Below, in pieces: positions 17,307-48,539 of a stretch of DNA of 64,000 nucleotides. The notes below the pieces were generated by a model, which worked only from the letters and a program-made list of their open reading frames with translations, had not been told where the DNA came from and searched no databases. Numbering within the stretch: position 1 is the stretch's first letter; each line of letters starts with the position of its first letter. Source of the stretch: Agelas oroides (taxonomy: Eukaryota > Porifera > Demospongiae > Agelasida > Agelasidae); assembly GCA_949130485.1 (NCBI GenBank), contig OX422183.1:8336636-8400635 (forward strand). The letters run 5' to 3'. A program made the translations under genes and the position numbers.

Positions 17307-17999
17307 TGGGGCGAGCCTGAGCGAGCCCCACACCAACAGTTGAACGGTGGCATCATTATTTAATATAAAAGACTTAAAAAACATTAAAATGTAAAAAGAT
17401 GTAGGGATGGCATGCCAAAAAGTATGCAAACAAGGTAAGGATGATATAATAGTGAAGGTAAATTTACAAAGCCTCATCCCTGCATCGTTTTCACACTAGT
17501 TTGCAACTGTACAGTTCATCCCTCAGGTCATATATATAGAGCGTTTTCAGCACGTGAACACAATTCCGTATACTAGAAATAAACCGCCATCTTGGTGTAC
17601 GACTTGTACAGTATGTTATTAGCAGTATATGCGATATCGATTAAAACACCCACAGGTAAGCGTTTATATAGCTGTTTTAACTTATGTAGCAATGGTATTT
17701 TGTCCGATTCAACACATATTAGAAGCATTATAAGTATATCACTCATTTCGTGAAGATCGCCATAGAAGCTCCTATCTCGTTGTGCACCAAAATGGCGGCT
17801 GTTTTCTGATTTCCTTCGTAATCTCGAACGTAATGACGTCACGTGCAATCGCTCTATACAGGACAAACATGGACTTCATCCTCGATACAGTTGCGTAAGA
17901 CTCATGTGACTTTCGGTTAGCCAAAGAATGCTGCTCTGCTTTGGTGCTGTGCTTTGCTTGCTCAGGCTCGCCCCACAATGTTCTACGTTTACACTAGTA
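17307..17999. mobile_element. Insert bounded by GGGGCGAGCCTGAGC inverted motifs
   Basis: The left end carries GGGGCGAGCCTGAGCGAGCC and the right part (to about 17976) ends GCTCAGGCTCGCCCC. Comparison with 13728-13760 shows that everything from here to about 17999 is extra. It contains a copy (about 17376-17495) of the AAAAAGATGTAGGGATGG repeat that is also found at 30699 and 31399. The exact ends and duplication were not resolved. Minus-strand open frames inside are unassigned. Confidence 0.6.
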
Positions 18000-22137: not shown

Positions 22138-22606
22138 CCTTTTCATGTCAAGCCAAACTAAAGCAAACTTAAATGTACACATATACGATTTCATAGCATG
22201 ATCAAGGGAGTTCACAATCATACAAAGTATTTGGTAAGTGAAAATCACACTCAGGTAACTGGTATGCCTAAGATGGATATGCATGCAGCAGCAGGTAGTG
22301 TGGGTTTGTACTATAAAAGAAGAAACCTGGTAGCTAGGTAGAATTGTAACAATTATTAAGTACACTTTGCAAAGTACATGATTATATGGAAATTTATAGT
22401 ACCAACATTCATTACTCTAAAACAGCCATTGTAGATACTGCTTGCTTAGGCTCACCCCATAATTCTGAAACAACTCATTCTTTCATTGTGTAGCACAAAG
22501 GAAAACTGATGAATGAGGACATAAGTCGGAAGAACAGCAGCCAGCAAGTACTTTTACCCAGCTTGGAGCTGTCAATTTCCTACAAGAAATCAGTATACCT
22601 AGCGTG

Positions 22607-24817
22607 ATGTCTCAACCACAAGAGACAGAACACATACCTGCCCAACAGCTATTTACACTGCCACCTGAACACCTCCAAATGTCTCGTCCATCTGGTATTC
22701 ATTACACATTGAAAGTCGATCCATCCAAACCAATCAGACAGTACCAGATGGAGCTAGCTGAGCCTGGCATCAATGGTGAAAACTACATAGTCTGTGCACC
22801 GACTGGCACAGGCAAAACACTGGTTGCTGGCCTCATCATTTCACATCACCTTCAAAAGAGGCAAAACCTAGCAAAGAAAGTTGTTTTCATTGTCCCAACA
22901 AGACCACTCGCTAAGCAGCAGGCGAAAGAGCTTCAAAACCTCATACCTGGAGCTCAAGTTGAGCCAATTATTGGGGATGAGAGTGGTTTGAGAATCAAAG
23001 ATATTCTCCCACACAGCGAAATCATTGTATGCACAGCTGGCAAGCTAGTGGATGAGATAGAAGGGAGCTTGGTTGCTTTTAGGAGTCTTGAGTTGATGGT
23101 GCTTGATGAATGCCACCATGCTCGCAAAAATTCTCCATATGCCAAGATGATGGAAAGGTATCTTGATGAAAAGAAGAAAAGTGGAGCCAAGAGTGTCCCC
23201 CAAGTGGTTGGCTTGACGGCATCTCCTGGAGCAGGGGAGAACCCAAACTTGGAGATGCAAAAAACAATTGACCATTTGATCTCACTCTGTGCACTCATGG
23301 ATGCTACAAGTGGGATAAAAGTTGTTAAAAAGAATGTATCCGAGCTGGACCAGTATACCATTAAGCCAACATTCACACTCAATATTCTTAATTGTCGTGA
23401 TCCAAATGAAGAATTAATTCGACTCATCACAGATGAAATGACAAAGCTTGAGAATGTAGTTGACCTAAAATCTTCCTTCAAGAAGTGGTCACTGGCATAT
23501 GAAGCTTGCGTTCAACAGAAGAAGTTGCCTTTGGAAATGAGTCTTAATCCTGAGCTCAGAATCAGCATCCGCATTTGTGATCTCTTGCAATGCTACTCAC
23601 AAGCACTGAATGTCTACATGGACTTGCGTAAAAATGATGCTATTAGTGTTCTGAGTGGGTTTACTGGTCTGCCAGCTGATCAGCAAGCTAATGATGTTGA
23701 GAAGCAGCTGAAACAAAGCCTTGACAAGCTTATCCATAAGCTAACCCTGCTACCACCTGTTAGGAACCCCTTTCTGCAGCAAGCTGAAGCAATCTTGCAG
23801 GACCAGTTCACAAAAAATCCAGATTCAAAAGGAATACTCTTTGTGCGTACAAAGAAGCATGCTTCATCTATGTGTGATTGGTTATTGGCACTTTCAGTAG
23901 GAACTGGATTGCTAATTCAACCTCGAATGATCACTGGCCACACACGACAAACAGGATATGGCATGACACAAACTGAGCAAGAAGAGGTGATTGAAAGCTT
24001 CCGCAAAGGTGAATGCAATGTTCTCGTGGCTACTTCAGTGGCTGAAGAGGGTCTAGATGTTCCAGCTTGTAATCTGGTCATTCGATTTCAGCATGTCTCT
24101 AATGAAATTGCCAGAACACAAACACATGGCCGGGCCAGAGCAGCAGAAAGTGAAGGCTTCACTATCCTCTCTAGTGATTCCAAGAAGCCATATCAAGAAA
24201 TGAAGAATTCTGAACTGCAATCTCTAGTAGATAAAGTGCTGCTGGATTACTTCCCAGCTGATTCTAATTTTCAGGAACAACTATTACAGAAGCAACAGCA
24301 GATTATCCAAAAAAATGAACTTATAAGATCTTTGAAGCAACAACGCCAGAAAGCAAATGCCAGAGAAAACATCCTGCTGAGGTGCAAAAAGTGCAAAACA
24401 ATTGCCTGCTCTGGTTCAGATGTTTATTCTACAGAGAATTCTACTCACCATGTTGTGCCAGATAAAGACTTCAAAGTGCTTAAAATAGTTACAAAGCCCC
24501 ACCACTCCCCAAAGCGAATAACACATAATATGAAAATAACACAAAAGATCCACTGTGTTAATTGTGATGCTGATTGGGGTGTAATGTGCATCTGGCCAAA
24601 TGAAGGCCATGAATTTCCAGTTCTGAAATGCAAGAGTTTTATTTTCCAGATCCATGGAGTTCCACACAGCATAAACAAGTGGTCAGATGTGACATTTGAA
24701 ATCCTTCCCCTCTCTGCTTATTATGTGGACAATGACTCTGAATCTGACCAACCTTTGAACGAACAACAGCAGAAAACAAATGGGGGAGGAGACATTTGGC
24801 TAAGATGTAAGAAGTGA
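22607..24817 (+). CDS. RIG-I-like receptor helicase (DECH box, RIG-I C-terminal zinc domain)
   Basis: One long exon. Residues 44-49 (RQYQME) and the Walker A APTGTGKT at 64-71 open the helicase core. Motif II is DECH at 167-170 with LDECHHARK around it, motif III TAS is at 204, and the second RecA lobe has VLVATSVAEEGLDVPACNLV and QTHGRARA at 505-512. From about 588 follows a RIG-I regulatory/RNA-end-binding domain: CKKC at 593-596, CVNC at 650-653, DWGV, PVLKCKSF and NKWSDVTFE match the family's zinc ligands and conserved lysines. No CARD is visible; an in-frame stop lies at 22514-22516 upstream. ATG 22607 is preferred over the adjacent GTG at 22604. The frame stops at 24817, but a GTAAGA donor after 24806 could instead splice in phase 1 to the Roc exon at 25509. 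Cytosolic double-stranded RNA sensing is the family role. Confidence 0.9.
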   Translation: MSQPQETEHIPAQQLFTLPPEHLQMSRPSGIHYTLKVDPSKPIRQYQMELAEPGINGENYIVCAPTGTGKTLVAGLIISHHLQKRQNLAKKVVFIVPTRPLAKQQAKELQNLIPGAQVEPIIGDESGLRIKDILPHSEIIVCTAGKLVDEIEGSLVAFRSLELMVLDECHHARKNSPYAKMMERYLDEKKKSGAKSVPQVVGLTASPGAGENPNLEMQKTIDHLISLCALMDATSGIKVVKKNVSELDQYTIKPTFTLNILNCRDPNEELIRLITDEMTKLENVVDLKSSFKKWSLAYEACVQQKKLPLEMSLNPELRISIRICDLLQCYSQALNVYMDLRKNDAISVLSGFTGLPADQQANDVEKQLKQSLDKLIHKLTLLPPVRNPFLQQAEAILQDQFTKNPDSKGILFVRTKKHASSMCDWLLALSVGTGLLIQPRMITGHTRQTGYGMTQTEQEEVIESFRKGECNVLVATSVAEEGLDVPACNLVIRFQHVSNEIARTQTHGRARAAESEGFTILSSDSKKPYQEMKNSELQSLVDKVLLDYFPADSNFQEQLLQKQQQIIQKNELIRSLKQQRQKANARENILLRCKKCKTIACSGSDVYSTENSTHHVVPDKDFKVLKIVTKPHHSPKRITHNMKITQKIHCVNCDADWGVMCIWPNEGHEFPVLKCKSFIFQIHGVPHSINKWSDVTFEILPLSAYYVDNDSESDQPLNEQQQKTNGGGDIWLRCKK

Positions 24818-25005
24818 AAGATAGTAATTCCTACTCTGGTTGAGATGGGTTTTTTTTTATGCTACCCACCACGCTAAGTTAGATAAAGAGTTCAAACATA
24901 ACCCTCTTTTCTTGAATTGATGTTTTCCTTGAATAGTAGTCACACAATTGGAAGTAAACATTAAGCTCAAATATTGACTGGGGCTGCTATACAAAGCTTT
25001 GTCTA
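24779..25005 (+). pseudogene. Broken second copy of the RIG-I C-terminal zinc domain
   Basis: After the complete C-terminal domain, the last codons of the helicase frame (WLRCKK then stop) repeat the start of the domain (LRCKKCK), with the second cysteine codon turned into TGA. The following bases still align, with indels, to the first copy: CTACTCTGGTTGAGATG against TGCTCTGGTTCAGATG, then GATAAAGAGTTCAAA against GATAAAGACTTCAAA. Further on, a frame reading SSNIDWG corresponds to VNCDADWG. This is a decayed tandem duplication. It lies inside the intron proposed for the helicase-Roc fusion. Confidence 0.7.
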
Positions 25006-25508
25006 AGTATATATATACTATCTATACATGAACACTTGTATGTGTATAGCAGATCTATGAACAATTGTGGAACCAAATAAATGCAAGATGTTCTTAGTGA
25101 TTTAGTGATTGTAGAACCAGGCTAGCAATAAGGCAGTTTTCAACAATTTGTTGCCATCACTGACAGTAAGCTATGCCTACTACTGCCAGCCCCTATCAAT
25201 GAAAGCTAGCTGTCAAGTATCTGCCTCATGGCAAGGTTCCATAGTGATAAGCCAAGCTGTATTGTAGGTATTGGGCTACCTTGCCGGTATCTGAACACCT
25301 TCAAAAAGATGTTGGCTTTAAGTAGTAGCCACATTTAGATATACAGCAAAGGTTTAGCCATGACGTCTGTTTAGGAAATACAATGGATTCACATGTGTAT
25401 TTGTGAATATTCAGCTTTTTCTGAGCATCCTCCTAGGAGTGTATAATTTGATTGTCTTACCACAGGGTATGGTGACATAATTATTCTGAATTTTTTTTCC
25501 TACCACAG
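25006..25508. other. Spacer between helicase and Roc exons
   Basis: No exon is seen. An AATAAA polyadenylation-like hexamer lies at 25076-25081 and could end a separate helicase transcript. The stretch finishes with a strong polypyrimidine tract and acceptor (TTTTTTTTCCTACCACAG) at 25508. It is either the rest of one intron or the intergenic region plus first intron of the Roc gene. Confidence 0.5.
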
Positions 25509-28500
25509 CTCTGGAAAACCAGCCACATTATGAAGCCTATCAACAGGCACTAAAGGAAGGAGTTGCAATATCGCTGAAGTATCTAAAAGTCCTCTTTTTT
25601 GGTCCTCCACGAACAGGGAAGACATCCATGAGACGTCGCTTGGTTGGAGAGATTCAGAACCTTGCAAAGGAACCTATTCAAATGAGGACTGGCACAGTGG
25701 AAGTTCATGATGTCATTGTCAAGCTAGTTGAGGACAAGATTACCTCTTCAACAACAATCATAACAAAGTCTGTGTGGTCAAATATAAAAGCCTTGTTTGG
25801 CCAAGGAACCAATGAGACAGATTTGGATGAAGAATTGAGGCTCCTCTATCAAATGATTTATGAATTTTATACAATTAAAATGAAATCTCATGTTCCTGAT
25901 TTGGTAAATGATGAAGGGCAAATTTCAATTACGTTGAAAACAGATACTGTTCCAAGTCCCATTCCACTTGAATCTCTGAAAGAAGTCCAGATTAATCCAA
26001 ACACCTCTACCCTTCAGGAAGTCTCATTAGTGAAATTGGCAGGAAAGGAACTGAGTGCCAAAGAAGTAGACGAAATTGAAAGAGCTTTTGTAGCTTATAG
26101 AAAGGTGTTGCATACACCTGGACAGGCAGAACTTAAAGCTCTGCTGGATGAAACTATTCTGATGAACATGGTTGACACAGGTGGTCAACCAGCATTCCTT
26201 GAGATGGTCCCAGCCTTGACAATTGGTCCAGCACTGTATCTCATCTTTTTTAGGCTCAACCAAGAGCTAAATAAGGTGTACCAGATACACTATATCAGTG
26301 AAGATAGTGAAGATGTCCATTTCGGCGATTCTATATACACTGTTAAAGAAGTAATTTTTCAAGCCCTATCAAGCATAGCATGTTTCAACTCTATTGTATC
26401 CAAGAAAGCTAACAACTATAATGTATTTTATGCAGCTATGCTTGTAGGCACACACAAGGATCTGCTTGGAAGTGATCCAGAAGGTGAAATTAAAGCTAAA
26501 GATGGTGCACTCCAAGAACATCTGAGAGAGATTTTGAAAACTGACATTTTTGATGAAAATTTCCTGCATTATGCTTCTGATGATCAGCTTATGTTTGCAA
26601 TTGATAACATGAAAGGAGATGAAGAAGAATTGACAAAAGTTCGGCAACGCCTTGAGGATGTAATCAAGCAAGAGTTTGATGACTTTCCAATTCCAGCCTC
26701 TTGGCTCATGTTCAACATCTTCCTTCGTAAGATGGGTAACCGCACCTTGAGCTTGTTGCAATGTCATGAGATTGGAGATAGATTGGAGGTGAAAGATACA
26801 GATGAAGCACTATGGTTCCTGCATCACTGTGTTGGAACCTTGATGCACTTTCCTGATGTAGAAGAGATCAAAGATGTTGTAATCTGTGATCCTCAAGTTG
26901 TCTTTGACAGTGTTACAGATCTAATCTTGAACAGCTTTAATCTTAAAAAGGTAAGCAAGTCAGCCTGTGACCAGTTCAAAGAAACTGGTCAGTTCAGCTT
27001 TAAAGACATTCAGAAGATTGCAAAAAACTCAAAAAGTGACAGCCTTCCTCTACCACAACTTGTGAAGCTCCTTGAATACCTTAACATCATTGCACGTATA
27101 AAACCTGAATGCCCTTCATGTTCTGTTGTATCATCTAGCAGTAGTGTTCCACCAAGTACTGGACTTACCACGCAATCAGATACATACCAAGAGGAGAAGC
27201 TAGTGTACTTCATGCCTGCTGTACTCAGACATGCAAAAGAAGAAGAGCTATATGTGAAGCAAAGTCCCACAGATCCAGTCCCTCTCATGATTCGCTTCAG
27301 GTGTGGCTTTGTACCTGTTGGTGTGTTCTGTGCCAAGATAGCTAGCCTTGTTGCTCAAAAGCACACTCTTAGGTGGTATCTTCAGGAACCACACAAACAT
27401 TCTTCTAAGGAAGGTAGTCATATTCTGTGCAAGAATAAAGTGACATTTCGAGTCAATGGTGCCTACGATGTCTCCTTAATTTCAAAGCCTAAGCGGTATG
27501 AAATTCACATTGCTTGCATTTCAACTACAGATATGACATTGGAAAATATCTGCCACCATGTTCGAAAAACTGTCTGTGACACTCTTGACCAAGTGATCTC
27601 CAAGATGAAGTACAAACAGTATCTGGCATCCTCCCTGTCTGATCAACCACTGTATGAGCTAGGTTTCAAATGCCCAGAACATCCAAATGATGATCACTTG
27701 GTCATTAACAGACCGAAGAGTGGAGTAGAAGCTTCATCACACTCAGCAAATCTTGTCTGGTTAAACTGCCTTGAAGGAAAGTCAACAATGGTTTGCCTGG
27801 AAGAAGAGAGGTCCATTGATTTTTCTGAATCTCAGTCTTTCACTCAACGGAGTCTTGTCTGGTTTGGAAAAGTAAGTCAGTTGTGTTGTAGTTAACCAGA
27901 CCTACATACTTAACAATAGTTCTATGTTTTACTCTTTTCTTGTAGGCTATGAAAAGCTCCCAAAGATTATCTGACCCTATACTTGGTAAGGACACTTTAC
28001 TGATATGTGTATATATATATATGGTTTATTTAGTTGAAAAGCTATCCTATTTTGTGTCAGCAAAGCTTATGTGTTCTACTTTATCTGTTTGCAGATGATC
28101 CTAAGTTGCCAAGATTGACAATTTCTCACCTACAACTTATTAGATATGGTAATCATGCAAATGAGCAAGATTTAAGGCTACTTCAGTGTCTTGCCATGAA
28201 GTGGAAGAGAGTGGGAGAGATTCTGGGCCTTCATAGGGCTGTAATTCAAAATATTGACAAACCTGGATCAGGAAGCTGCCTTGAGGATTGCATTCGTCAA
28301 GTCTTTGTAAAGTGGCTTGACAATGCGTCCCAATTGCCCAATTGCAGCCAGTACCCCTTGACCTGGAGGGGACTTTACAACCTTCTATTAACTTCAGAAC
28401 ATGGTGACGCAGCCAGTGAGCTAATAGTTGCTCTTTCAAGTCAGTTCAATACTGTGGTAGCAGCTGCAAGTGAGTTTTGATACTATATATGGTAGATACA

Positions 28501-31500
28501 AACTGATGAATTGTATTTTTACGTCTTGTCCCTAGGACAGCATGCCAATTCCAATACAGAAAACAGTATCAGAAAAAGTAGAGGGTGGACATATTAATAC
28601 CCTAATGAGTCCAATGATATATAAAGTGTTGGCCATTTATGTGTATTAGTGCTTGTGTTTGTCAACAAATAATATTACTGAGCATACAAATCAATTTTAG
28701 GCATTTGACTCTCTGAAATATTGTAGGCTACAGAAACAACACTGCATAATGTTATCAACTTTCCAACTGTCAAATTATTGGTCTGTTATTTATTGTTACT
28801 ATACACATAGCTACTCGGCCACTACAACAACCTCATTCTGCTACTATTGCTGGAGTGGATACTACTGAAACACCATCTGTAGTGGAGACTTCTCCAAAAA
28901 GTGTGTGTAATATGCATATTTTGTATGTTGTTAGTCTATACTCTATAGAAGGTACACTGTAGTTCATATGTGTTGATGTGAGTGCTTAACCTGTGATCCT
29001 ACACTGTTATACTCAAACAGTTATTCACCCACCTGAACTTTCTAAACAACCTAACTCGGCTGCCTGTACCTTTGCGAAAGGAAGTGCTCCAGAACAGTCA
29101 GTACCACCTGAGCCAAAAGCAATGAAGCACAAAGGTAGGTGTGTAAACTACCAACATAGCATTATTTCGCTCGAACCCCGGCCCCTTTGACCTCATGGAG
29201 GACCAGCGCGGAATCTACAGCAACTATAGCTTCAAATACAAGCTACTTACTGTAGAAGCTAGATACTAGAAACTTTTTGCACTAAAAAGGTAATTCATGT
29301 GCAAGTGTTCTGTAATATAATACTAATGGTGTGTGGTATTACTCCTTTTTATTGCACCAACAAAAATATACTAATGATGACAAATTCCCAGTTTAGGAAC
29401 TTCATGATTTCTTGTACTCAGCGTAACTCTACCAGACACATCCACTAATGTAGCTGGACTGGGTTCCAAATTACATGAAGAAAACTAATCAGCCTTGCCC
29501 TACAAGTATTGCCAACTCTGGCAACCGGTTAATATAATTATGTTGTAGGTTGTATGCAGAATAGCAGTAGTCTAAGAATGTTTGCTTATTTTTTGTAAAA
29601 ATTTCGCTTCTGTAGGTGGAGATCCTTGCCCTGAATTTTGTGAGTCCATGTCATTTGACAAATTTATTGACTTACTGAAACAAAGAGGAGTTATGGAAAA
29701 AGACATTGAATTGTTGACGAGTAAGTGCTATAAATATATAGTAACTGCCCACTATCAAAGAGTCGGTAGACTCTCTATGTAGGGATGGCGATATATGCAG
29801 TACTTAAGCAAAAGCCGTATAACTTCACCACAAACACGCTAAAAGCTTATTTAAGCGCCCAGGCTTCCTCTTTGAGTGCCTTTGTGATCAGCAAGACTCA
29901 TATAGTTGCCCAAAAGCCACGCGGAAGACAGCTAAACGCAAAAGTGTGCGGTAGCAAAAGTGCCATTTTTCGTATTCTTCTTTCTTTGTTCAGACCACTT
30001 GTCAAACGACAATAACTCAAAAACGGCCTCACCTTGATTTAGCATGAAATTGATGCTCGTCAAAGCGTGCAGATTCACAACCCCTCAGCGTCTTCATAGC
30101 TTCAAGTTCACCCTGGTCAACAAAAACCATTCACAGCACTCTGAGGCTGTTGTCCGTTGCTTAGGACGCCATTTTCTAATTTTGTACGCATGCGCACACG
30201 AAGTCTCATTCCCAGACCAAAGACCACGGTCATTGGTCTGGAAGCGAGACTAGTACACAAGCGAAATTGCAGTACACATGGCTGGCACGGTCCTTTCGCC
30301 CCACGGCATTGGGCAAGGCTTGTGAACACCACATAGGTAAGGGGCTGCATTCAGCTGCCTACTTGTAGCTACACTAAAAATAGCTACTCACAGCTTTAGT
30401 GAACTGTAAAGCTAGGATGGTCAGTTGTCTGTATGACACTTTTCTGAGCTGCAGCTGGTCAGTCAGGCGTCATGTGCCTTTGACAACTGAATCATGAAAC
30501 TGGTTTCACAAAGTTTGGTAGGGAGAGTGGTTGGCCCTTCATCAGGTTCTAGCTGGCAATATTATACATAATTATTAAATGCCTGGAACCACTACTAAAC
30601 TGTCAACGCCGTTTCAAGTTCTGGTGTTGTGGTTACACTTGAAATATTCTTCTTAGGCTTAGGTCTAACTGTAACTGAGATAAAAAGTACAGAAACAAGA
30701 CTTTAAAAACATTAAACATGTAAAAAGATGTAGGGATGGCATGCCAAAAGTATGCAAACAAGGTAGGGATAATGCATGAAAGCAAAGGTCAACATATTGG
30801 CAAAGCCCCATCCCTACATCTTTTTCACACTGCAGTTAGACAGTGCATGGGGATCTTCCTAAAACATACCACAAGTTCACTCCAACCTTTACTGGCAGTT
30901 CATGGCTGTAGCCTCGTTCTCAGGCCACTTCCTAGCTCATCCCACATGGCCTGGGAATGAGGCTGGTATGATCCACGCCTAGCTACCAGGTAGTTTATAT
31001 AGTGGTACACTTGGTAGCATTGTGTTATACGAAACCTATTAAACAACTTATGCAGTGACTTGGAGTAGACTGCATAAGTGTTGTAAAAGTACATGGTGCA
31101 TGGCATGGTTTTAGCCTCATCCTGAGGCCACTTTCCTCCTCCCACGTGGCCTAGGAACGAGCCTAGCATCAGCTGTATAGATATGTGTGTCTTGTAGGTA
31201 GCTACCAAGGTTAGTAGTTTTGTTGCCGTGACAGTGGCCCCCTTGTTATATGCCTCTGGCATAACCTAGACACTGAGCTCGAGTGGGCTGCAGACTGATC
31301 ATTATAATCAGTGTGTAAAACTCAAGTACTCATGCACAGCATTAATAACTGCATGGATGGCTGCAGATTCAGCTCTCAACTCAAGCATGCTGTCTACCTG
31401 CAGTGTGAAAAAGATGTAGGGATGGGGCTTTGCCAATATGTTGACCTTTGCTTTCATGCATTATCCCTACCTTGTTTGCATACTTTTTGGCATGCCATCC

Positions 31501-31767
31501 CTACATCTTTTTACATTTTTAATGTTTTTAAAGTCTTGTATATAATGGATTAGCATGTAAGCTTGCATGTGTGTTTATATCCCTCCACATGTAAGCTATA
31601 GGCTCAATACTTGGCTTATGTCTGAATGCTGTTTCTTTGATGCAGAGGAGTCGATCAATGCTCAAGTGTTTGTGATGTTGAAAAAGGAAGAACTTAAGGA
31701 ACTTGGTATGTCCTTCGGAGGAAGGAAGGTTCTTGAAAAGTTAATGGAAGAGATAAGATTGCAATGA
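25509..31767 (+). CDS. Roc GTPase-COR-Death-SAM protein (possibly 3' part of a helicase fusion)
   Basis: Seven exons: 25509-27871, 27946-27985, 28095-28469, 28811-28900, 29021-29134, 29616-29720, 31646-31767; all junctions keep frame (one phase 0, then phase 1). The first exon starts LENQPHYEAYQQALKEG, then a P-loop GPPRTGKTS, switch motif DTGGQPAFLEM and THKD, the Ras-like guanine motif, marking a Roc GTPase. A COR-like segment follows (IPASWLMFNIF, LWFLHHCVGTLMHFPDVEEI, CDPQVVFD). Exon 28095-28469 is a Death domain (MKWKRVGEILGL, YPLTWRGLYNLL). A Ser/Pro/Thr-rich linker leads to a SAM domain split by a 1.9 kb intron (SFDKFIDLLKQRG, then LGMSFGGRKVLEKLMEEI). The first exon has no start codon before the P-loop and opens with an acceptor in phase 1, so upstream coding sequence must exist. 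Role: GTP-switched death-fold signalling in the cytosol, by family analogy. Confidence 0.85.
29721..31645. other. Intron splitting the SAM domain, repeat-rich
   Basis: It contains three foldback remnants of the CCTGGGAACGAGGCTA type (about 30201-30252, 30909-30964, 31111-31168) and a pair of inverted copies of another MITE (next entry). Open frames within are repeat-derived. Confidence 0.65.
30699..31536. repeat. Inverted pair of AAAAAGATGTAGGGATGG elements
   Basis: Arms 30699-30835 and 31399-31536 are about 138 bases each, nearly identical and in opposite orientation, separated by about 560 bases. Each arm is itself a MITE with inverted ends (AAAAAGATGTAGGGATGG and CCATCCCTACATCTTTTT). A third copy is at about 17376-17495. 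Within an intron the pair could form a long RNA hairpin. Confidence 0.8.
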
Positions 31768-47900: not shown

Positions 47901-48539
47901 GCATGTGCATTTTTTCATCCAGTAGGAGCAGGTTCATCAGTTATAGAATTATCCTGATCCTGTTTCTCAGTCGTACTAACAAGTTTTTGCACTAGTACTC
48001 TTCAACCAAGTTGAACCACCTCTGCTGATTCTAGACCACTCTGGCTTTTAACCCCTGAGTGCATGACAGAGTTGCCATTCTTTAGTATCTACCAGTTATC
48101 ACACAGGCTACCCTCTGCATTACACCAACCATATATCATTCATACAGATATTACCCTAAGCACAAACGTTGCACCAACCATTCTCAGCACAAACACTGCA
48201 CCAACTATTCTCAGCACAGATGTTACCCTCAGCATGGGTGCTATTGTGGCAATTGCAGTGGTAACTATTGGCACTATTGTACTTGTTGTTGGAGTCCTGG
48301 TTGGAGTTCTGCTGTACTATTGCATCAACAAGCACTCATCACTACTCAAAAAGCCCCAAAGCACCAAATCTGAGTCCTCTTCTCACCAACAGCAACAAGC
48401 AGGTCCGGAGTATGAGGAGGTGCAGGAAAGTCCAGGATATGAGGAGGTGCAAGCAGTTCAAGAGTATGAGGTATCTGCCACCATTGGTGGAGAGGAGATT
48501 GAACTGAGGGAGAATGCATATGAGCCTGTACAGCACTGA
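35912..48539 (+). CDS. Ig/FN3 transmembrane receptor with YEEV-motif tail
   Basis: Eight exons: 35912-35984, 36783-37112, 40494-40787, 42391-42464, 43234-43453, 44805-45122, 46238-46339, 48148-48539; 600 residues, phases 1,1,1,0,1,1,1. Residues 1-24 are a signal peptide (LPLLLLYG core). An Ig domain follows (FQCEATG, ALWEV, IKCQAS), then an FN3 domain (LPNPPTG, LQWEAP, YKFTVCSNN). A second FN3 is built from exons 4-5 (PQRLEGLNVSLT, NRMYTASVEARNQFG). Next comes a beta-sandwich-like segment with TITCTF and GCHVVI, then a Thr/Ser stalk with three APTILST-type repeats. The membrane helix is at about 502-527 (IVAIAVVTIGTIVLVVGVLV). The tail has PEYEEV, PGYEEV and QEYEV and ends EPVQH. The donor after 45122 (GTACAA) is weak; without it the frame stops at 45133. 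Adhesion or recognition is inferred; the tyrosines look like SH2-binding sites. Confidence 0.75.
36597..36633. repeat. (GATA)n microsatellite
   Basis: About eight GATA tetramers lie in the first intron of the Ig/FN3 receptor gene. Confidence 0.9.
37113..40493. other. Intron 2 of the Ig/FN3 receptor, repeat fragments
   Basis: A CCTGGGGACGAGGCTA half-element lies near 37200 and a CAGTAAAACCTCC fragment at 37318. A hairpin at about 37800-37880 pairs TGACTCGGCAATATACTCC with its inverse. 37886-38010 repeats the inside of the 33816-34206 element. No exon was recognised. Confidence 0.55.
40788..44804. other. Introns 3-5 of the Ig/FN3 receptor
   Basis: Besides the exons already listed, these introns hold a hAT-family fragment (about 41610-41670) and an inverted pair AGACCTTATGCAATACCTCA and GTGAGGTATTGCATAAG (41851-41965). 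Foldback remnants lie near 42135-42215 and 42986-43050, and a copy of the GGGGGTCTGGGGGCAT repeat at about 43899-43990. No other gene is visible. Confidence 0.5.
45123..48147. other. Introns 6-7 of the Ig/FN3 receptor
   Basis: Only the 102-base exon at 46238-46339 was recognised in this 3 kb stretch. A (GT)n run lies at about 47876-47901. Short open frames on either strand have no splice context. Confidence 0.5.

What the first reader, a model, noticed from the sequence alone, without database searches (positions are those of the whole stretch)
22607..31767. Possible single gene: RIG-I-like helicase fused to Roc-COR-Death-SAM
The Roc exon at 25509 begins with an acceptor and has no start codon before its P-loop, so coding sequence must lie upstream. 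The only strong upstream coding sequence is the helicase. Its last codons contain a GTAAGA donor (after 24806), and splicing to 25509 keeps frame (phase 1, joining T and CT to a Ser codon), skipping the stop at 24817. The product would have 1,802 residues: DECH helicase, RIG-I C-terminal zinc domain, Roc GTPase, COR, Death, SAM. Vertebrate RIG-I signals through CARDs; this architecture would link RNA sensing to a GTPase and death-fold output in one chain. Against it: phase agreement has a 1 in 3 chance, an AATAAA lies at 25076, and the donor bases coincide with the LRCKKC codons of the duplicated domain.
Basis: partly seen in the sequence, partly recalled or inferred. Interest (0 to 1): 0.88.

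Follow-up and report, generated by a model that had tools for sequence, protein, structure and literature searches.

The report
Sponge RNA-sensor and Roco-GTPase chimeric locus
In what appears to be a sponge chromosome, a virus-RNA-sensing helicase that has lost its usual start domain and usual stop codon sits directly in front of a GTPase gene that has lost its own front half, so the two may be read as one new immune receptor, but only RNA data can show whether they are.

Summary
The geometry is right: exons 22607-24806 and 25509-31767 splice in phase to 1,802 residues. The helicase is a RIG-I-like receptor; the rest is a Roco gene (COR-A at threshold, Roc sub-threshold, Death and SAM weak). 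The window's own genome (259 Mb) adds what sequence reading could not. Four of four helicase paralogs have an upstream Death exon; this copy has none, and a TGA where three paralogs stay open. Three close paralogs stop right after ESD; here that codon is CAA and the frame enters a decayed second copy of the zinc domain. Twelve of 17 close Roc paralogs have a death-fold-like exon upstream, and the two upstreams fetched in the best-scoring cluster also a caspase exon; this copy has neither. Its acceptor, phase and about 120 intron bases are kept. So the locus is a chimera of two truncated genes. Whether it is one transcript stays open: the donor is weak for this genome and equals two alternative first-exon donors, and an AATAAA lies between. 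I put the single gene at 0.45, two genes at 0.33.

The parts
22494..22606 (+). Part of the helicase exon before the ATG: acceptor at 22494 is shared with three helicase paralogs, which stay open here; this copy has TGA at 22514-22516 in the helicase frame
22607..24751 (+). RIG-I-like helicase and first RIG-I C-terminal zinc domain, up to the codon before the place where three paralogs stop
   Evidence: Pfam PF00270, PF00271, PF11648; RIG-I 7jl1_A E 2.5e-87 over residues 27-702; paralog ends at ESD
24752..24817 (+). Extension past the paralogs' stop position (CAA where L050 has TAA), running into a second copy of the start of the zinc domain; stop TGA at 24815-24817
24754..24896 (+). Decayed second copy of the start of the RIG-I C-terminal domain
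   Evidence: 0 of 500 shuffles reach the score for 24786-24896; blastn to L050-L052 from 24754; 72-73% to L050-L052 and 68% to the first copy
24807..24812 (+). Candidate donor GAT|GTAAGA, phase 1 (weak)
25076..25081 (+). AATAAA, possible polyadenylation signal of a helicase-only transcript
   Evidence: 0.44 expected by chance in 692 bases
25386..25508 (+). 3' part of the ancestral Roco intron, still similar over its length to the intron before the Roc exon in two paralogs (the others match only its last few dozen bases or fewer)
   Evidence: L024 68%, E 2e-11; L022 64%, E 8e-9
25509..27871 (+). Roc-COR exon, phase 1 in, phase 0 out
   Evidence: L011-L026 hold it from residue 1; COR-A PF16095
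27946..27985 (+). Short linker exon
   Evidence: splice sites and phase only
28095..28469 (+). Death-like exon
   Evidence: no Pfam hit; weak match over 74 residues to the helicase family's Death exon, 27%, E 0.024, no better in E than two shorter chance-like matches in the window; conserved downstream of Roc in 5 of 16 paralog loci within the 1.5 kb held, 69-77%
28811..28900 (+). Linker exon
29021..29134 (+). Linker exon
29616..29720 (+). First part of SAM-like domain
31646..31767 (+). Second part of SAM-like domain and stop
   Evidence: PF23307 15.8 bits, below cut-off 27; 4 of the 5 PDB sequence matches come from proteins known for SAM domains, E 0.03-0.6 (SAM identity of two of them recalled)

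Best explanation
A dispersed copy of a RIG-I-like receptor gene and a dispersed, 5'-truncated copy of a Roco gene were brought together so that the helicase's 3' end lies inside what was the Roco gene's phase-1 intron. The usual forms in this genome are Death-helicase-RD (RLR) and [caspase or other N-terminal exons]-death-fold-like-Roc-COR, with a Death exon after COR in the closest copies (Roco). Here the helicase has lost its N-terminal Death exon and its normal stop, and the Roco part has lost its N-terminal exons. I think it most likely that one transcript is spliced from the helicase (24806, or another site near its end) to 25509 and gives helicase-RD-Roc-COR-Death-SAM. The inferred action: the helicase and zinc domain bind viral double-stranded RNA, RNA-bound chains line up, the GTPase module dimerises, and the Death and SAM domains, now at the C-terminus, recruit death-fold partners in place of the lost N-terminal Death domain. 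Shown: the chimeric anatomy. Inferred: one transcript, and every step of function.
For: Roc exon has a strong acceptor kept with its phase in 15 of 16 paralogs and about 123 bases of its ancestral intron, but none of the paralogs' upstream exons is found in the window or near it in the genome (12 hits, each with a Roc paralog as its downstream same-strand neighbour). The only coding sequence found upstream is the helicase. Helicase stop lost relative to L050, L051, L052. Helicase lacks the Death exon that 4 of 4 paralogs have. Both halves stay open and show excess synonymous change on this copy's own branch: Roc 48-64 synonymous to 69-82 nonsynonymous over 8 choices of sister and outgroups, P 2e-11 to 4e-4 against neutrality; helicase 39 to 79, P 0.003 to 0.03. 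The inferred donor at the end of L050's Death exon is AAT|GTAAGC, phase 1, very like the candidate GAT|GTAAGA. Six of seven introns in the model are phase 1, the class that suits exon shuffling.
Against: The donor is weak in this genome (below 34 of 34 donors, or 19 of 20 unique ones), no better than two private first-exon donors, and its letters are Cys-Lys codons also present in an unspliced paralog. A stop begins 8 bases after the junction, and an AATAAA lies 259 bases after that stop. Purifying selection looks more relaxed than in relatives: helicase 0.56-0.67 against 0.26-0.51 in the three others (the first includes any stem change if this copy is the outgroup), Roc 0.30-0.52 against 0.24-0.41 in sisters. 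No other RLR in the genome is followed by a listed Roc match, and no helicase lies in the 5.4-14 kb examined upstream of 8 Roc paralogs, so there is no second instance. Five other Roc paralogs also lack a detected death-fold exon, so that loss is not unique. The branches may predate the rearrangement.
Confidence: 0.45

Rival explanations
1. Two genes. The helicase stops at 24815-24817 and is polyadenylated near 25076; the Roco gene uses a new promoter and a very short private first exon in the 690 bases between, spliced to 25509, giving Roc-COR-Death-SAM with a few extra residues. The helicase alone would be an LGP2-like receptor without a signalling domain.
For: AATAAA at 25076. With lax thresholds three ATG exons reach a phase-1 donor: 24920-24953, 25028-25037, 25228-25267; by this genome's donors the first two score like 24806 (0.24 and 0.29 against 0.57 bits with all 34; 0.86 and 1.35 against 1.26 with the 20 unique), and with all three smaller training sets 25037 scores above 24806 (1.2 against -1.4, 2.8 against 0.0, 2.6 against 0.6). 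LGP2-like sponge RLRs have been reported (PMC8260672, passages).
Against: With human-like frequencies no ATG exon there has a phase-1 donor at or above 0.41 bits, the weakest donor taken as real in the window's Ig exons, whereas 184 of 320 (overlapping) non-coding windows of that size hold one. No coding signal in the interval.
Confidence: 0.33
2. Decaying locus. The rearrangement broke both genes; the open frames persist because the event is recent or because only one half is still used.
For: The helicase branch is the most relaxed of four and the Roc branch slightly more so than its sisters; TGA in the 5' part, lost Death exon, lost stop, decayed zinc-domain copy. Some Roc paralogs and pieces of the helicase cluster are themselves broken.
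Against: Both long frames are open (736 and 794 codons), although about 4% of random changes in the Roc exon would make a stop, and both show a synonymous excess on this copy's own branch; the downstream exons keep splice sites and frame. The branch may predate the event, so this does not date it.
Confidence: 0.15
3. The Roco gene's 5' exons lie upstream of the helicase, which would then be nested in a long intron on the same strand.
For: Distances between the death-fold exon and the Roc exon reach 9.2 and 15.8 kb in paralogs.
Against: None of the family's N-terminal exons is found in the 25 kb of window upstream by tblastn (best E 0.1, elsewhere in the window) and no death-fold exon is listed near C1:8.3 Mb genome-wide; no coding signal in 16-22.5 kb.
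Confidence: 0.07

Closest known systems
RIG-I-like receptors (RIG-I, MDA5, LGP2), in particular the sponge type Death-helicase-RD reported for Amphimedon queenslandica (PMC8998645, passages)
   Same: Helicase motifs, RIG-I_C-RD domain and its four cysteines align with RIG-I; four paralogs in this genome have a Death exon before the helicase
   Different: This copy has no N-terminal Death exon, lacks the stop of its three close paralogs, and is followed by Roc-COR-Death-SAM
Roco proteins (Roc-COR GTPases), e.g. LRRK2, DAPK1, MFHAS1 (examples recalled)
   Same: P-loop, DTGGQ and GTHKD motifs in order (motif names recalled) and a COR-A match
   Different: About 190 residues between P-loop and DTGGQ, Roc below Pfam cut-off, N-terminal partner missing and an RLR in its place
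[quoted passage not shown]
   Same: Domain shuffling around an RLR core
   Different: None of the passages seen describes a Roc-COR module; here it would be C-terminal
Roco modules in immune proteins: Aplysia TLR and MyD88 proteins with ROC-COR (PMC9334734, passages), a sea anemone kinase-Death-TIR protein with Roc, COR and SH3 (PMC5094078, passages)
   Same: Roc-COR joined to immune sensor or adaptor domains
   Different: No RNA helicase in the passages seen

Membership tests
RIG-I-like receptor | SF2 helicase core with DECH box and motifs I, III, VI | tested here: met
   APTGTGKT 64, DECH 167, TASPG 204, QTHGRARA 505 (motif names recalled); PF00270 96.6 and PF00271 67 bits
RIG-I-like receptor | RIG-I C-terminal domain with four zinc cysteines | tested here: met
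   PF11648 78.3 bits; C593, C596, C650, C653 align with the RIG-I cysteine pairs (zinc role recalled)
RIG-I-like receptor | N-terminal CARD or Death signalling domain (absent in LGP2 type) | tested here: not met
   Death exon upstream of 4 of 4 paralogs, none found upstream of this copy; TGA in the joining exon. This excludes the Death-helicase-RD type, not the LGP2 type
Roco (Roc-COR GTPase) | Roc GTPase motifs | tested here: inconclusive
   Motifs present in order at 31, 222, 313, Pfam Roc 17.9 bits, cut-off 27
Roco (Roc-COR GTPase) | COR domain directly after Roc | tested here: met
   COR-A 33.3 bits on the whole exon (below the cut-off 35.3), 35.4 on residues 364-530; E 5e-8 and 1e-8
Single-gene RLR-Roco fusion | Open, phase-compatible junction between helicase and Roc exon | tested here: met
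Single-gene RLR-Roco fusion | Donor within the range of real donors of this genome | tested here: inconclusive
   0.57 bits, below 34 of 34; 1.26 bits, above 1 of 20 unique sites
Single-gene RLR-Roco fusion | A transcript crossing the junction | not testable with these tools
   no RNA data held
Single-gene RLR-Roco fusion | Same arrangement at another locus of this genome | tested here: not met
   no listed Roc match near another RLR (best candidates only: 57 of 226 scored)
Single-gene RLR-Roco fusion | Same arrangement in another species | not tested

The most novel reading that the evidence does not exclude
A single animal protein that joins a RIG-I-type RNA sensor to a Roco GTPase with C-terminal Death and SAM domains: an RNA receptor that lost its N-terminal Death domain and regained one at the other end through a GTPase switch, formed by recombination inside a phase-1 intron within one genome where both parent families still exist.
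Probability: 0.43. Interest if true: 0.78.

Novelty: new variant of a known kind. Interest (0 to 1): 0.57.

Why it matters
If one transcript is made, RNA sensing and a GTPase switch with a death-fold output would lie in one chain, a layout that I did not see in the listings and passages of eight literature searches on the subject (open-access papers only; listings show the best 8-20 papers). Even if it is two genes, the locus shows how sponge immune genes are built: both parent families are present in the same genome with their usual partner exons, so the lost and gained parts can be named exon by exon. The death-fold-like exon just before Roc reads as phase 1 on both sides in the copies looked at, and the upstream partners differ between paralogs (caspase, two exons of unknown kind, or none found), which points to a modular Roco receptor family.

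Tried and rejected
Structure prediction of the Death exon and of the Roc-COR exon without alignments gave pLDDT 43.7 and 34.6; too poor for a fold search, so none was made. Viral contigs held no relative of either protein. Genome contigs held none of the Roc exon and for the helicase only one locus, 24% identical over residues 353-524, in a bacterial assembly. A first view that the donor at 24806 was clearly the best in the interval was given up after training on this genome's own donors. The argument that upstream exons beyond the helicase are impossible because introns are short was given up after 9-16 kb distances were seen in paralogs. The AATAAA as strong evidence was rejected: 0.44 expected by chance. 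The idea that the whole second zinc domain is preserved as decayed sequence is not supported: homology ends at 24896 and the rest does not beat shuffles. The interval 24890-25510 found only itself and one 72-base match on another contig in the own genome. The match of the helicase family's Death exon to 28193-28423 (E 0.024) is weak evidence: two other matches in the window have E 0.022 (27 residues at 736-807) and 0.029 (13 residues, antisense in the helicase), and it is not among the 91 genome hits. Dropped rows: L025 was left out of the Roc codon analysis because its alignment starts elsewhere, and L012 and L020 (in-frame TGA) fell out by length.

Caveats: splice frequencies are recalled human-like values. 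Donors of Ig exons and of paralog Roc exons were picked as the best GT near the exon end, which flatters them. Only the best candidates of the genome searches are scored, so counts are lower bounds (150 of 356 candidates, 57 of 226). The 17 Roc paralogs count two pieces at C2:17.39-17.40 Mb as one locus; exons are assigned to genes by strand and distance, not by transcripts. SAM exons were not looked for in paralogs. I read no paper in full.
Full report
WHAT IS THERE. The helicase half is a RIG-I-like receptor: DEAD, Helicase_C and RIG-I_C-RD pass their Pfam cut-offs, and the best solved relatives are RIG-I, LGP2 and MDA5; the cysteine pairs 593/596 and 650/653 align with those of RIG-I. The other half is a Roco gene: COR-A at its cut-off (33.3 or 35.4 against 35.3 bits), Roc below cut-off but with a P-loop, DTGGQ and GTHKD in order. 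The Death and SAM labels are weak by Pfam and PDB sequence search. The helicase family's own Death exon matches 28193-28423 at 27%, E 0.024, but two shorter matches in the window have like E-values.

THE JUNCTION AT FACE VALUE. The Roc exon has a very good acceptor (top 0.3% of 4,187) and no start before its P-loop. A coding score finds nothing coding in 24,820-25,490 and nothing convincing in 16-22.5 kb on the + strand. The donor at 24806 looked good with recalled human-like frequencies (1.88 bits, top 4.2%), and no ATG exon with a phase-1 donor of 0.41 bits or more exists in the interval, although 184 of 320 overlapping non-coding windows of that size hold one. Training on this genome's own donors lowers it: rank 226 of 4,026 and below all 34 training donors scored with themselves left out; among unique sites it beats 1 of 20. 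It is then no better than the donors after 24953 and 25037, each of which has an ATG in phase. Smaller training sets rank it lower still (923, 489 and 406 of 4,026), and all three put 25037 above it. The splice sites alone do not decide.

PARENT FAMILIES IN THE SAME GENOME. After many unanswered tries genome search placed the window at C1:8336636-8400635 of a 259-Mb assembly. The Roc exon has 17 close paralog loci, 60-74% identical over their main piece. In 15 of the 16 aligned (L011-L026) the acceptor and phase are kept. A death-fold-like exon (no convincing Pfam family) precedes it on the same strand in 12 of 17, 0.4 to 15.8 kb upstream, and each of its 12 genome hits has a Roc paralog next. 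In the two upstream stretches fetched for the best-scoring cluster a caspase domain (PF00656, 87.7 and 82.9 bits) lies further upstream; in others, two further conserved exons of unknown kind (two and three copies). None of these exons is found in the window (best E 0.1). A Death exon like that of the window follows Roc in 5 of the 16 loci within the 1.5 kb held.

The helicase has three paralogs at 76-80% and one at 46%, all at C1:8.817-8.849 Mb. All four have a Death exon 0.3 to 2.4 kb upstream, matching the Death-helicase-RD type described for Amphimedon queenslandica (PMC8998645, passages). The three close paralogs end right after ESD, with TAA, TGA and TAG.

WHAT CHANGED IN THIS COPY. Three things. 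First, no Death exon is found before this helicase, and the exon part that would join to it carries TGA at 22514-22516 where the three paralogs stay open. Second, the codon aligned with the paralogs' stop is CAA, and the frame continues into a second, decayed copy of the start of the zinc domain, 24754-24896, 72-73% identical to the paralogs' functional domain (significance). Third, the Roco half keeps its acceptor and about 120 bases of the family intron (25386-25508; L024 E 2e-11, L022 E 8e-9; the other paralogs match only the last few dozen bases or fewer) but none of the upstream exons. So the helicase's 3' end sits where the rest of the Roco intron and its N-terminal exons used to be. This is the anatomy of a chimeric gene made by recombination in a phase-1 intron. 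The anatomy is shown by sequence; what follows is inference.

ONE TRANSCRIPT OR TWO. For one: the Roc exon needs an upstream exon; the helicase has lost its stop; both halves show an excess of synonymous changes on this copy's own branch (Roc 48-64 synonymous to 69-82 nonsynonymous over 8 choices of sister and outgroups, P 2e-11 to 4e-4; helicase 39 to 79, P 0.003 to 0.03); and the Death exon of the helicase paralog L050 ends in a very similar inferred T|GTAAG phase-1 donor. Against: GTAAGA at 24807 is a Cys-Lys codon pair that L050 also carries inside its open exon; a stop follows at 24815-24817 and an AATAAA at 25076 (0.44 expected by chance); the helicase branch is the most relaxed of the four and the Roc branch slightly more relaxed than its sisters; and there is no second instance in the genome: no listed Roc match lies near the helicase cluster, and no helicase in the stretches examined upstream of 8 Roc paralogs. 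I put one gene at 0.45, two genes with a new short first exon at 0.33, a decaying locus at 0.15, a nested arrangement at 0.07.

FUNCTION. If fused, the product would bind double-stranded RNA through helicase and zinc domain (established for RLRs), dimerise through Roc-COR (established for several Roco proteins, recalled) and signal through Death and SAM at the C-terminus, replacing the Death domain lost at the N-terminus. If not fused, the helicase would be an LGP2-like receptor without a signalling domain and the Roco product a Roc-COR-Death-SAM protein without the family's N-terminal partner. For this locus all of this is inference.

NOVELTY. Domain grafting on RLRs is known (PMC8998645; PMC8260672, coral LGP2-like proteins with an RNA polymerase domain; PMC8195603, TRADD-N with RLR-like receptors; passages only), as are Roc-COR modules in immune proteins (PMC9334734, PMC5094078; passages only) and exon shuffling in ROCO genes of brown algae (PMC11378527, abstract). 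Eight searches of the open-access library on the subject listed no RLR with a Roc-COR module that I recognised from titles, abstract starts and the passages read. I file it as a new variant of a known kind.

Noticed in passing
window 30695-31539: Inverted repeat with 150-base arms, 98% identical, inside the last intron; a related stretch (85%) lies at 17363-17497. Looks like a foldback or MITE-type element.
   Followed up: partly
window 22509-22607: A 32-codon upstream frame begins at ATG 22509 and its TGA overlaps the helicase ATG at 22607 (TGATG). The acceptor at 22494 is shared with the paralogs.
   Followed up: partly
L047 5376-6284 and 7570-7770; L048 3218-4129 and 4518-4718: The two upstream stretches fetched in the C1:4.79-5.05 Mb Roc cluster carry a caspase domain exon and a death-fold-like exon before Roc: a probable caspase-Roco architecture.
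   Followed up: partly
L050-L061 (without L057 and L059), C1:8.817-8.849 Mb: A cluster of Death-helicase-RD genes with degenerate pieces between them; the window's helicase is a copy about 0.46 Mb away.
   Followed up: partly
L012, L020: Two close Roc paralogs carry an in-frame TGA in the Roc exon.
   Followed up: no
window 25601-26190: About 190 residues separate the P-loop from DTGGQ, much longer than I recall for Roc domains; this may explain the weak Pfam Roc score.
   Followed up: no
window 36700-64000: Several exons that look Ig-like and FN3-like by eye on the + strand, and at 48015-48536 a hydrophobic stretch followed by repeated YEEV motifs: one or more receptor genes next door (no family search made).
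   Followed up: no
own genome: 133 Roc-family matches, and a large set of more distant Roc-COR exons (about 30-36%), many of them clustered on C20 and C13: a big Roco expansion.
   Followed up: no
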